Assembly: GCA_000828835.1 (NCBI GenBank)
Contig: AP014633.1
Coordinates: 930,001 to 994,000, forward strand
Direction: 5' to 3'
DNA length: 64,000 nucleotides
Origin: Thioploca ingrica
Lineage (GTDB): Bacteria; Pseudomonadota; Gammaproteobacteria; Beggiatoales; Beggiatoaceae
Part shown: positions 12,865-20,674 of the stretch, in pieces
How the letters are laid out: each line of letters begins with the position of its first letter
How positions within the stretch are numbered: the stretch's first letter is position 1
Translations under genes and position numbers: made by a program
Notes under the pieces: generated by a model
What the model saw: only the letters and a program-made list of their open reading frames with translations
Told to the model about the DNA's origin: nothing
Database searches by the model: none

Positions 12865-13704
12865 ATGTTTAATCCAACAGAACTCGTCATTGATGGCTTT
12901 GTTGAACAACTGGAAACCGCTTATCGCCGTAATTATGGTTCATTAGAAGTCGCTAATAGCTCGATTATTGCTTGGGCAGGACGCATGGCTTTGGAACATT
13001 TTGCTAATAGTGATGCCCTTTATCATAATATGGAGCACACTATCATGGTAACCTTAGTGGGACAGGAAATTCTTCGCGGTAAACATATTCGCGAAGGGGG
13101 AGTCTCACATCGTGATTGGCTTAATTTTATTATTTCCCTTCTTTGTCACGACATTGGTCATGTTCGTGGCATTTGTCGTGATGACCGTGATGGTTCTTAC
13201 ACGACCGGGGTTAAAAATGAAATGGTCACTTTACCGGAAGGGGCAACGGATGCCTCTATGTCACCTTATCATGTTGATCGAGGCAAACTTTTTATTCGGG
13301 AACGTTTTGGCGGTAATCCGGTGATTGATGCAGAAGTAATTGCCGCTAATATTGAATTAACTCGTTTTCCAGTTCCGGATGATAGTGATCATCAAACTAC
13401 TTTTTCCTATCCTGGTTTAGTACGAGCCGCGGACTTAATTGGACAACTGGCTGATCCGCACTATCTGCGAAAATTACCATCGCTATTTTATGAATTTCAA
13501 GAAACCGGGGTTAATGAACATCTGGGTTATCGCACGCCCTTTGATTTACGCAGAGGCTATCCATCATTTTATTGGGGAATTGTCAGTCGTTATATTCAAG
13601 ATGCTTTACATTATTTGCGTATCACTCAAGAAGGTAAACAGTGGATCGCTAATCTATACTCCCATGTATTTGCTTCTGAACATAAAGAATTTCATAATTT
13701 TTAA
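12865..13704 (+). CDS. HD-domain metal-dependent phosphohydrolase
   Basis: A 279-residue soluble protein with an HD superfamily core: YHNMEHT (metal-binding His), then CHDIGHVRGICRDD (the HD doublet with the extra His), and a later Asp in VRAADLIGQLADP. The opening MFNPTELVIDGFVEQLE and overall pattern match the HD metalloprotein family known from cyanobacteria (Npun_R2479-type), as I recall it. It lacks a GYP motif, so I do not call it a cyclic-di-GMP phosphodiesterase. Its place between sensor kinases and a GGDEF-EAL protein suggests nucleotide signalling, but the substrate is unknown. AAGG at 12854-12857 serves as ribosome site. Confidence 0.85.
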   Translation: MFNPTELVIDGFVEQLETAYRRNYGSLEVANSSIIAWAGRMALEHFANSDALYHNMEHTIMVTLVGQEILRGKHIREGGVSHRDWLNFIISLLCHDIGHVRGICRDDRDGSYTTGVKNEMVTLPEGATDASMSPYHVDRGKLFIRERFGGNPVIDAEVIAANIELTRFPVPDDSDHQTTFSYPGLVRAADLIGQLADPHYLRKLPSLFYEFQETGVNEHLGYRTPFDLRRGYPSFYWGIVSRYIQDALHYLRITQEGKQWIANLYSHVFASEHKEFHNF

Positions 13705-17128: not shown

Positions 17129-20100
17129 ATGTCTTATTCTAAACTGACTTTCCACACAGTAAATTTTAACCAGCTATTTCAAGCAGATACCCTTTACCAG
17201 TTGGATCAAGAATTTTTAGCTTACTTAAATCACCGTGATAGTTCTTTACACAGTCGGTTGTTGGCTTATCGTGAGGGGTCAACGACAGCCGTCAGTGAGT
17301 TAATATTAGCTGGTGCGCCCTGGTTAGAGGAATTTATCGCCGATTTTTTTGCTATTCAGGAGTCGCTCGCCAACTCACGCCAGCAAGTTCGCCAGTACAA
17401 TTCCCGGTTTGAATTTAAAAAATGGTTGGTGTTACGACGAGCGAAGCGGCGGTTGCATCAACCCGCGTTAGCAAAAAATTTTACTGAATTAAATGAATGG
17501 TTAGCACAAGCCTTAGTGGATTACCGATCGCTGAGCAATGAACCAACGAATTTGCCCATTAATCAGCCAGAGTTAATCACCGAAATAGCAGTTGCCCAAT
17601 TAGCGCAACATTATTTATCTAATCCAGACAACCATTCCGAAGCCATTGAACAACTCACGAATTGGTGTGTTGCTGCCTTAACCACGTCAGAAGGACAAGT
17701 TTGGGTACGGGATTGGGTCAGTTTTCGCTTACCACAACCGATTAATCATGCTCATTTAGTTCCCATCACCCCGGTTCCCCATGATCCACTGGGGCGATTA
17801 GAAGGTTCGGTGTCAACTCGTCGTCAGCGTCAGGGTTTTAAATTAACTGACCAGCGCATGTCGGCAGTGCAAGTACAAAATGAAATTCATTATTGTATTT
17901 ATTGTCACGATCACAATGGTGATTTCTGCTCTAAAGGCTTTCCAGAAAAGAAAACCGAACCGGAACGGGGATTAAAAACGGATCTGTTAGGTAATATTTT
18001 GACCGGTTGCCCGTTGACAGAAAAGATTTCGGAAATGCACCTGCTCAAGCGCCAAGGTTACCTGATTGCGCCGCTGGCGGTGGTGATGATAGATAATCCC
18101 ATGTGCCCAGCGACCGGTCATCGAATTTGCAATGACTGCATGAAAGCGTGCATTTATCAAAAACAAGAACCGGTGAATATTCCGCAAATTGAAACCCGTG
18201 TCCTGACGGATGTGTTGGAACTGCCGTGGGGTGTAGAAATTTACGATTTACTGACACGCTGGAACCCACTACGACAACAACAATGGCTGCCGAGACCATA
18301 CAACGGTCTAAAAGTTTTAATTGCCGGACAAGGACCCGCCGGTTTCACCTTAGCTCACCATTTACTCATGGAAGGATTTGCGGTCGTCGGCATTGATGGT
18401 CTTAAAATTGAGCCACTGCCTGAATCTTTGCTGGAACGACCCATTCGTGATTATACCGTTATTAAAGAAGAACTTGACCAACGAATTATGGCTGGGTTTG
18501 GTGGCGTGGCGGAATACGGCATTACGGCACGTTGGGACAAAAATTTTCTCAAATTAATTTATCTGAGTTTATTGCGTCGTCCCTATTTTCAAATTTATGG
18601 CAATGTTCGTTTTGGTGGCACGGCAACCGTCGAAGACGCCTGGGCATTGGGCTTTGATCATTTGGCTATCGCTGTCGGTGCGGCATTACCGCAAGCGTTA
18701 TCTATTCCGGGCAGTTTGGCACCGGGGATGCGTCAAGCCAGTGATTTCTTGATGGCTCTACAGCTAACGGGGGCAGCTAAAGCCAATAGTTTAGCCAATC
18801 TCCAAGTTCGGTTACCCGCAGTCGTCATCGGTGGTGGGTTAACCGCAATCGATACCGCTACCGAAGTTCAAGCTTATTACTTGGTGCAAATTGAAAGAAC
18901 CTTGTATCGTTATGAACAACTGGTTCAAGCCTGGGGAGAAGCCCAAGTTCGCGAACAATTTGATGTTGCTTCACTCGAAATTTTGGATGAATTCCTAACC
19001 CATGCCAGACAATTACGCACCGAACGCAAACAAGCCCAAGCGAACGGAACTGAACCCAATATTCAAAGCTGGTTACGTCAATGGGGCGGTGTTACTGTGG
19101 TTTATCGGCGCCAGTTGCAAGAATCACCCGCTTATAAACGTAATCACGAAGAAGTGATTAAAGCTTTAGAAGAAGGGATTTACTATTTGGAAGGGGTGGA
19201 ACCCAAAGCCGTGCGCTTGGATAAATACGGTCAAGTCCAATTTTTAGTCGGTTATCGGCGCTTACGGGATGCCACCGGACATTGGCAAACCACGGCTGAA
19301 GAAGTGATATTGCCCGCCCGTGCTATTTTGGTCGCCACCGGAGCGCAACCCAATATTGCTTACGAATTTGAACACCGCGGACACTTTCAACGCGTGGGTT
19401 TGCAATATCAACCCTATCACGATGTTGCCAGCACTTTACAAGCGCTACCACTAACAACGCATTGTAAAAGCAAAGAATTTGGCCCATTCACTTCTTACGA
19501 ACAAGATCACCATCGCGTGACTTTTGTCGGTGATACCCATCCGACTTTTCAAGGCAGCGTGGTGAAAGCGATTGCTTCAAGCCAACGAACTTATCCCGCG
19601 ATTGTCAAACTATTTGCTAACCAAATTAATGCCGTCGGCAGTGAAGCAGAATATCTCACTTTTCGCACTCAAATTCAAACAGCGTTTCAAGTAAAACTTG
19701 AACAAATACAACGCTATGCACCAAAAATTGTTGAATTAACCATCAAGGCGCCTTTGGCTGCACAAAAATTTCGTCCGGGACAATTTTTTCGCTGCCAAAA
19801 TTTGGAAACCCAAGCAGCCATCATAGACAATACGTCATTGCAAATGGAAGCCCTCGCGCTCCGTTGTGTGGACGTGGATCGCGAGCAGGGAACGCTTACA
19901 CTCATGGTCATTGAAAACAGTGCGAGTTCTTGTTTAGGTGCGACGCTGAAGCTTGGTGAACCACTGGCTTTGATGGGTCCAACCGGGGCAAGTACTAAAA
20001 TTTATAGCGGTGGTGAAACCGTGATGATGATAGGCGAATGTGCCAGCCTAGCTGAAATTCGCACCCTCGGTCCGGCTTGGCGAGCCGCCGGCAATCGGGT

Positions 20101-20674
20101 ATTGTACATTGCTTGTGTATCTGATGCCGCTGAGATTTATTGTCAAGACCAGTTAGAAGCTGCTGCGGATGTCATTGTTTGGATTACTAAAACCGGTGAA
20201 CCCGTGGCGGTGCGTCGTTCCCAAGATTATGCAGCGACCGGTGATTGCTTCGAGCAGTTACACTATTATGCCAGGGGACAATTATCGCCAGCTAACCCCC
20301 CGGCTATTCCTTTGCCAACGGTAACTCAGGTGCTGGTCAGCGGTGATTATCAGTTTGTCTCGCTGTTTATGCAGGCACGGGAAGGTATTCTACGAGAAGA
20401 TTTAACCCACTCGCCACCGGTGACCATTGCGGTCAATGGACCCATGCAGTGTATGCTTAAAGGGATATGCGCTCAATGTCTGCAATGGCAAATTGATCCG
20501 ACGACTCAACAAAGAACCAAGGCGGTATTTGCTTGTTCTTGGCAAAATCAACCGGTAGAAATCGTCGATCTGGCTCATTTAGCCGAACGTTCTCAGCAAA
20601 ATCGCTTGCAAGAACAATTAAGTCAGTTATGGTTAGATTATTTATTCGCTTATCATAAAGTGGAACGAATCTAA
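17129..20674 (+). CDS. fused NfnB-NfnA-like iron-sulfur flavoprotein
   Basis: A 1181-residue oxidoreductase combining two modules normally on separate chains. Residues about 250-830 resemble GltD/NfnB: two Cys clusters (C256, C259, C267, C294 and C326, C334, C337, C341) for 4Fe-4S centres, an FAD fold (VLIAGQGPAGF, about 396), an NAD(P) fold (VVIGGGLTAIDTATE, about 565) and VTFVGD. Residues about 860-1150 resemble NfnA/PyrK: a ferredoxin-reductase FAD domain (FRPGQFFRC), an NAD-binding segment, and a C-terminal 2Fe-2S motif at C1108, C1114, C1117 and C1136. Nfn enzymes exchange electrons between NADH, NADPH and ferredoxin by bifurcation; that activity here is inferred. The first 245 residues are helical and match nothing I recognise. 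ATG 17129 is preferred to TTG 17090, which overlaps the previous gene. Confidence 0.8.
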   Translation: MSYSKLTFHTVNFNQLFQADTLYQLDQEFLAYLNHRDSSLHSRLLAYREGSTTAVSELILAGAPWLEEFIADFFAIQESLANSRQQVRQYNSRFEFKKWLVLRRAKRRLHQPALAKNFTELNEWLAQALVDYRSLSNEPTNLPINQPELITEIAVAQLAQHYLSNPDNHSEAIEQLTNWCVAALTTSEGQVWVRDWVSFRLPQPINHAHLVPITPVPHDPLGRLEGSVSTRRQRQGFKLTDQRMSAVQVQNEIHYCIYCHDHNGDFCSKGFPEKKTEPERGLKTDLLGNILTGCPLTEKISEMHLLKRQGYLIAPLAVVMIDNPMCPATGHRICNDCMKACIYQKQEPVNIPQIETRVLTDVLELPWGVEIYDLLTRWNPLRQQQWLPRPYNGLKVLIAGQGPAGFTLAHHLLMEGFAVVGIDGLKIEPLPESLLERPIRDYTVIKEELDQRIMAGFGGVAEYGITARWDKNFLKLIYLSLLRRPYFQIYGNVRFGGTATVEDAWALGFDHLAIAVGAALPQALSIPGSLAPGMRQASDFLMALQLTGAAKANSLANLQVRLPAVVIGGGLTAIDTATEVQAYYLVQIERTLYRYEQLVQAWGEAQVREQFDVASLEILDEFLTHARQLRTERKQAQANGTEPNIQSWLRQWGGVTVVYRRQLQESPAYKRNHEEVIKALEEGIYYLEGVEPKAVRLDKYGQVQFLVGYRRLRDATGHWQTTAEEVILPARAILVATGAQPNIAYEFEHRGHFQRVGLQYQPYHDVASTLQALPLTTHCKSKEFGPFTSYEQDHHRVTFVGDTHPTFQGSVVKAIASSQRTYPAIVKLFANQINAVGSEAEYLTFRTQIQTAFQVKLEQIQRYAPKIVELTIKAPLAAQKFRPGQFFRCQNLETQAAIIDNTSLQMEALALRCVDVDREQGTLTLMVIENSASSCLGATLKLGEPLALMGPTGASTKIYSGGETVMMIGECASLAEIRTLGPAWRAAGNRVLYIACVSDAAEIYCQDQLEAAADVIVWITKTGEPVAVRRSQDYAATGDCFEQLHYYARGQLSPANPPAIPLPTVTQVLVSGDYQFVSLFMQAREGILREDLTHSPPVTIAVNGPMQCMLKGICAQCLQWQIDPTTQQRTKAVFACSWQNQPVEIVDLAHLAERSQQNRLQEQLSQLWLDYLFAYHKVERI

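What the first reader, a model, noticed from the sequence alone, without database searches (positions are those of the whole stretch)
17129..20674. NfnB and NfnA modules fused in one chain, with a new N-terminal domain
Two 4Fe-4S Cys clusters with a GltD-like FAD/NAD(P) module and a PyrK-like FAD/2Fe-2S module are on one 1181-residue protein, in the order B-A. About 245 N-terminal residues are unexplained. It could be a bifurcating NADH/NADPH/ferredoxin enzyme in a sulfur-oxidizing lineage, which would need such a step to make NADPH or ferredoxin for CO2 fixation.
Basis: partly seen in the sequence, partly recalled or inferred. Interest (0 to 1): 0.7.

Follow-up and report, generated by a model that had tools for sequence, protein, structure and literature searches.

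The report
Nfn-like reductase with decayed NADH site
This gene encodes a large, never-studied enzyme built like the energy-splitting enzyme Nfn; the half that uses NADPH looks intact, but the half that should use NADH has lost its binding residues, so it is probably an NADPH-to-ferredoxin electron carrier enzyme rather than the NADH-linked enzyme first proposed.

Summary
Architecture holds: one 1181-aa ORF (17129-20674, +) with an N-terminal domain, an NfnB/GltD-like module (model 202-831 on P. furiosus NfnI large subunit, Z 28.5) and an NfnA/PyrK-like module (848-1172, Z 15.1). All seven Cys plus one Glu of the two [4Fe-4S] sites and four Cys of the [2Fe-2S] site are invariant in 65 homologues. 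The N-terminal ~230 residues form a confident all-helical domain without a PDB or Pfam match, but already sit in a named NCBI model (PRK06567). B-A fused Nfn is published ('Pattern C'). Homologues occur in Coxiella-like endosymbionts, methanotrophs and Myxococcota, not only sulfur oxidizers. Ferredoxin gene fdxA lies within 4 kb in several lineages, directly upstream in two Acidithiobacillus. Best explanation: an NADPH:ferredoxin oxidoreductase derived from fused Nfn whose NADH branch is vestigial, with the [2Fe-2S] cluster retained for an unknown purpose. New variant of a known kind; function untested.

The parts
17129..20674 (+). whole gene, 1181 aa; stop of the upstream GGDEF/EAL gene is about 10 bp before the ATG
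17129..17818 (+). residues 1-230: all-helical N-terminal domain (nine helices of four or more residues), no known fold match
   Evidence: AF2 pLDDT 89.6; no PDB match E<=0.001 and best VIA Z 3.2; found only on full-length family members
17834..18253 (+). residues 236-375: domain of the two [4Fe-4S] sites; C256, C259, C267, C294, C334, C337, C341, E355
   Evidence: invariant in 65 homologues; aligned to NfnB motifs
18296..19624 (+). residues 390-832: GltD/NfnB-like b-FAD and NADPH domain (GxGPAG, GGGLTAID, YRR, GD)
   Evidence: Pyr_redox_2 E 4.5e-12; 5jfc_L Z 28.5
18401..18499 (+). residues 425-457: insertion relative to NfnB, with invariant L425, K426, E428
18866..19078 (+). residues 580-650: helical insertion inside the NADPH domain relative to NfnB
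19670..19993 (+). residues 848-955: FNR-type barrel of the A half, a-FAD motif degenerate (N5 Thr position is R912, 19862-19864)
   Evidence: 5jca_S profile match E 3.2e-16
20006..20398 (+). residues 960-1090: nucleotide-binding Rossmann of the A half, Gly motif degenerate (GECASLA, 20033-20053)
20420..20548 (+). residues 1098-1140: [2Fe-2S] domain, C1108-x5-C1114-x2-C1117...C1136
   Evidence: invariant in 65 homologues
20549..20671 (+). residues 1141-1181: C-terminal helices as in NfnA

Best explanation
A single-chain NADPH:ferredoxin oxidoreductase that descends from a fused Nfn (order B-A). NADPH reduces the b-FAD of the GltD-like half; single electrons pass through the proximal and distal [4Fe-4S] clusters to a small ferredoxin (FdxA type where present). 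The A half keeps its [2Fe-2S] cluster but, in this clade, its a-FAD/NADH site is vestigial, so the protein works like P. furiosus NfnII (a simple NADPH:Fd reductase) rather than like bifurcating NfnI. The helical N-terminal domain most likely docks the ferredoxin or client protein. Shown: architecture, conserved ligands, loss of constraint on the a-site, fdxA linkage in relatives. Inferred: cofactor occupancy, substrate, direction, role of [2Fe-2S] and of the N-terminal domain.
For: B-half fold and ligands intact. A-half site classes: T + GGGLGNA/GGGVGNA (19 sequences), S plus mostly AGxWGAA (14), degenerate (32, incl. P0001). At equal B-half identity the A-half FNR region is 0.64 / 0.48 / 0.38 identical while the [2Fe-2S] segment is 0.75 / 0.68 / 0.73; Rossmann part 0.61 / 0.42 / 0.32. 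Of 43 class-3 columns conserved >=95% in the A half, none lies in the Gly motif and 29 lie in 1106-1158. The tree (B half only) puts the degenerate class in one fully supported clade plus a separate Sulfuriferula pair, nested away from the intact class, so the loss is derived. fdxA within 4 kb in 6 of 50 genomes, 0.14 expected; 19 bp upstream in L077 and next gene upstream on A. caldus plasmid pTcM1. The complete host genome has no PF00175 FNR-type domain. NfnII precedent: PMC8097209.
Against: The host genome itself has no FdxA at E<=1e-15, so the partner there is unknown. No fdxA linkage was seen in the window's own family. R888 and Q890 in the FNR barrel remain invariant, so FAD may still bind. 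No biochemistry. Absence of PF00175 does not exclude a thioredoxin-reductase-type ferredoxin reductase.
Confidence: 0.55

Rival explanations
1. Still bifurcating, but the high-potential electron leaves from the [2Fe-2S] cluster (with or without a-FAD) to an unknown protein acceptor instead of NAD+.
For: [2Fe-2S] domain is the most constrained part of the A half in all classes; a whole domain is kept although its catalytic site decayed; invariant Arg468 can be placed, with a one-residue gap, on the b-FAD N5 arginine of Nfn.
Against: No candidate acceptor in the neighbourhood; four Cys instead of Asp + 3 Cys should lower the cluster potential, which works against a high-potential branch; the Arg placement depends on the alignment (off by one in the ungapped alignment).
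Confidence: 0.2
2. One reading: NADH/NADPH/ferredoxin bifurcating transhydrogenase (true Nfn function).
For: Architecture; class-1 homologues keep Thr and GGGLGNA; in the host family canonical NfnA and this gene never co-occur (6 and 18 of 36 genomes, none with both; hypergeometric 0.0095 by genome, 0.096 by genus).
Against: Thr and Gly motif lost, and constraint on the domain lost, in P0001 and its clade.
Confidence: 0.08
3. Electron donor to a client other than ferredoxin (for example an AprA-like flavoprotein, glutaredoxin/Fe-S metabolism, or a sulfur compound), with FdxA only one of several partners.
For: A PRK08275 flavoprotein and fdxA share a cluster with the gene on pTcM1, KUB_Bin07, Sulfuriferula and G454, with a HEAT protein in the first three; grxD is adjacent in Coxiellaceae.
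Against: These neighbours are absent from the window and from most homologues; FdxA is the element shared by both contexts.
Confidence: 0.15

Closest known systems
NfnAB / NfnI (P. furiosus 5JCA, 5JFC; T. maritima 4YLF, 4YRY)
   Same: both subunit folds, two [4Fe-4S] sites, b-FAD/NADPH half, [2Fe-2S] domain and C-terminal helix
   Different: one chain in B-A order; extra helical N-terminal domain and two insertions; [2Fe-2S] with 4 Cys; a-FAD Thr and Gly motif lost in this clade
P. furiosus NfnII (Xfn, 5VJ7), non-bifurcating NADPH:Fd reductase
   Same: Nfn fold with altered NAD site (PMC8097209); 5vj7_A Z 27.8
   Different: two subunits, archaeal; there a loop blocks the site, here residues and constraint are lost
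NCBIfam NF005128 / PRK06567 (putative bifunctional glutamate synthase beta / 2-polyprenylphenol hydroxylase)
   Same: best model, 631 bits, covers the N-terminal domain
   Different: below its cut-off of 1072 bits, as are all six further members of the wider family that were scored; the name is automatic and does not fit
'Pattern C' fused Nfn of Actinobacteria/Proteobacteria (PMC6405883); PRK12779
   Same: B-A order in one chain
   Different: described as about 200 residues longer than other fused Nfn, with a-FAD and NAD domains; P0001 is longer still and matches PRK12779 weakly (82 bits)

Membership tests
Nfn (NfnAB) | NfnB fold with two [4Fe-4S] sites, FAD and NADPH site | tested here: met
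Nfn (NfnAB) | NfnA fold (FNR-type plus [2Fe-2S] domain) | tested here: met
   4yry_C Z 15.1 over 848-1172
Nfn (NfnAB) | a-FAD strand ERxPxT with Thr to N5 | tested here: not met
   EALALR in P0001; the Thr column (912) is R; motif from PMC6405883
Nfn (NfnAB) | [2Fe-2S] motif DGTGMCGxC with Asp ligand | tested here: not met
   CMLKGICAQC
Nfn (NfnAB) | b-FAD N5 arginine | tested here: inconclusive
   Arg468 invariant; aligned, off by one
Nfn (NfnAB) | NADPH/NADH/ferredoxin bifurcating activity | not testable with these tools
   needs assay
NF005128 (PRK06567) | score above curated cut-off 1072 | tested here: not met
   631 bits
Pattern C fused Nfn | B-A order in one chain | tested here: met
Pattern C fused Nfn | intact C-terminal a-FAD/NAD binding domains | tested here: not met
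NfnII-like NADPH:Fd reductase | NADPH:Fd activity without NAD+ | not testable with these tools
   needs assay
Glutamate synthase beta subunit (GltD) | partner GltB large subunit in the same operon | tested here: not met
   none among the ten neighbours scanned

The most novel reading that the evidence does not exclude
A descendant of Nfn found in aerobes in which the high-potential branch was re-routed: the NADH/a-FAD site has died, but the four-Cys [2Fe-2S] cluster stays as an exit (or gate) to an unidentified acceptor held by a helical docking domain of unmatched fold, so NADPH oxidation could still be bifurcated to ferredoxin.
Probability: 0.18. Interest if true: 0.75.

Novelty: new variant of a known kind. 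Interest (0 to 1): 0.5.

Why it matters
A conserved, uncharacterised Nfn descendant is spread over Proteobacteria, Myxococcota and small endosymbiont genomes. Natural intact and decayed versions of the NADH branch on otherwise alignable proteins give a ready comparison of what the A half does for bifurcation, and the protein is a candidate for the missing NADPH:ferredoxin reductase of a complete host genome without any detected PF00175 FNR domain.

Tried and rejected
Conserved operon: none among 79 loci; only the gene itself recurs widely. N-terminal domain as a known fold: Pfam, PDB sequence search, Foldseek and VIA gave nothing above noise; the VIA list is a second look at Foldseek hits, so a missed relative is possible. 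AprA-like flavoprotein as general partner: above its cut-off in one of 18 genomes searched. FdxA as partner in the host: no hit at E<=1e-15. NfnAB/P0001 mutual exclusion: significant by genome, not by genus. Literature: no held paper names PRK06567.

Full report
Observation. The ORF at 17129-20674 (+) is real, 1181 aa, with no internal stop. It begins about 10 bp after the stop of a GGDEF/EAL gene and is followed by a Pyr_redox_2 flavoprotein, ftsY, ftsE and ftsX. It is single-copy in its 4.81 Mb one-contig genome.

Architecture. An AlphaFold2 model from 65 homologues has pLDDT 90.9 and pTM 0.92. Residues 202-831 match P. furiosus NfnI large subunit (Z 28.5, 2.3 A, 442 residues) and 848-1172 match T. 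maritima NfnA (Z 15.1, 2.8 A, 260 residues). A profile search agrees (5jca_L 9.1e-22, 5jca_S 3.2e-16). C256, C259, C267, C294, C334, C337, C341 and E355 are invariant and align with the NfnB ligand motifs; PMC8097209 names a Glu ligand at the corresponding cluster of glutamate synthase and Gln in DPD. C1108, C1114, C1117 and C1136 are invariant; Nfn has Asp in place of the first (PMC6405883). Two insertions relative to NfnB (425-457 and 580-650) are family features.

N-terminal domain. Residues 1-230 fold alone with pLDDT 89.6 into helices. No Pfam family matches consistently, no PDB sequence, no Foldseek match at E<=0.001 and a best VIA Z of 3.2. It was found in 25 of 143 genomes of the class, always on open frames of 1056 aa or more. 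It is part of NCBIfam NF005128 (26 of 28 sequences), so it is uncharacterised rather than new.

The NADH branch is decaying in this clade. The column aligned with the Nfn N5 Thr (ERxPxT) and the Gly motif sort 65 sequences into three classes: T with GGGLGNA or GGGVGNA (19), S with mostly AGxWGAA (14), and degenerate (32; P0001 has R and GECASLA). Among pairs whose B halves are 55-65% identical, the A-half FNR region is 0.64, 0.48 and 0.38 identical in the three classes and the [2Fe-2S] segment 0.75, 0.68 and 0.73. Split further, the FAD barrel is 0.66, 0.55, 0.45 and the Rossmann part 0.61, 0.42, 0.32. A tree from the B half rooted on NfnB places the degenerate class in one fully supported clade plus a separate Sulfuriferula pair, both nested away from the intact class. 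So the loss is derived and happened at least twice, while the [2Fe-2S] domain stayed under strong constraint. This argues against NADH-linked bifurcation here. P. furiosus NfnII is a precedent for an Nfn with an altered NAD site that is a plain NADPH:Fd reductase.

Distribution. Homologues span the host family (18 of 36 genomes; named relatives are Thiotrichaceae and Thiomargarita), Coxiella-like endosymbionts, Acidithiobacillus, Ectothiorhodospiraceae, methanotrophs, Sulfuriferula, Myxococcota and a Chlorobiota MAG, and 18 of 397 phylum-wide genomes. That does not track sulfur oxidation or CO2 fixation.

Partner evidence. There is no conserved operon, but fdxA is within 4 kb in 6 of 50 genomes that have both (0.14 expected if placed at random, not corrected for kinship) and in further Coxiellaceae, Acidithiobacillus and Sulfuriferula loci. 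It is 19 bp upstream in L077 and the next gene upstream on A. caldus plasmid pTcM1, in a run GntR - PRK08275 flavoprotein - 4Fe-4S protein - HEAT protein - fdxA - homologue. Flavoprotein, HEAT protein and fdxA recur upstream in Sulfuriferula, and flavoprotein plus fdxA in G454. In several Coxiellaceae grxD stands between fdxA and the gene. The host genome has no FdxA and no PF00175 domain at the thresholds used; canonical NfnA is found in 6 of 36 family genomes, none with this gene (p 0.0095 by genome, 0.096 by genus).

Mechanism. Most likely NADPH -> b-FAD -> two [4Fe-4S] -> ferredoxin, with a vestigial a-site and a [2Fe-2S] cluster of unknown use. Cofactor occupancy, direction, the partner in this host, and the job of the N-terminal domain are inferred, not shown.

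Verdict. Architecture confirmed, fusion order already published, N-terminal domain already in a database model but of unmatched fold, bifurcation and CO2-fixation role not supported for this clade.

Noticed in passing
L012 (G027:C2:23939-47775): A same-family genome carries one full copy plus about 15 partial, in part stop-bearing, pieces of the gene on one strand: an array of decaying tandem copies.
   Followed up: no
L150:3809-11483 (plasmid pTcM1), L077, L094, G454:C9: A recurring set of a PRK08275 AprA-like flavoprotein and FdxA, with a HEAT-repeat protein in three of the four, near the homologue.
   Followed up: partly
whole genome G000: The complete host genome has no PF00175 FNR-type domain and no FdxA at the thresholds used.
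   Followed up: partly
window 12865-13704 (+): 279-aa ORF between a response-regulator kinase gene and the GGDEF/EAL gene, without any Pfam match.
   Followed up: no
L014 (G014): Homologue with an in-frame TAA within the matched stretch.
   Followed up: no
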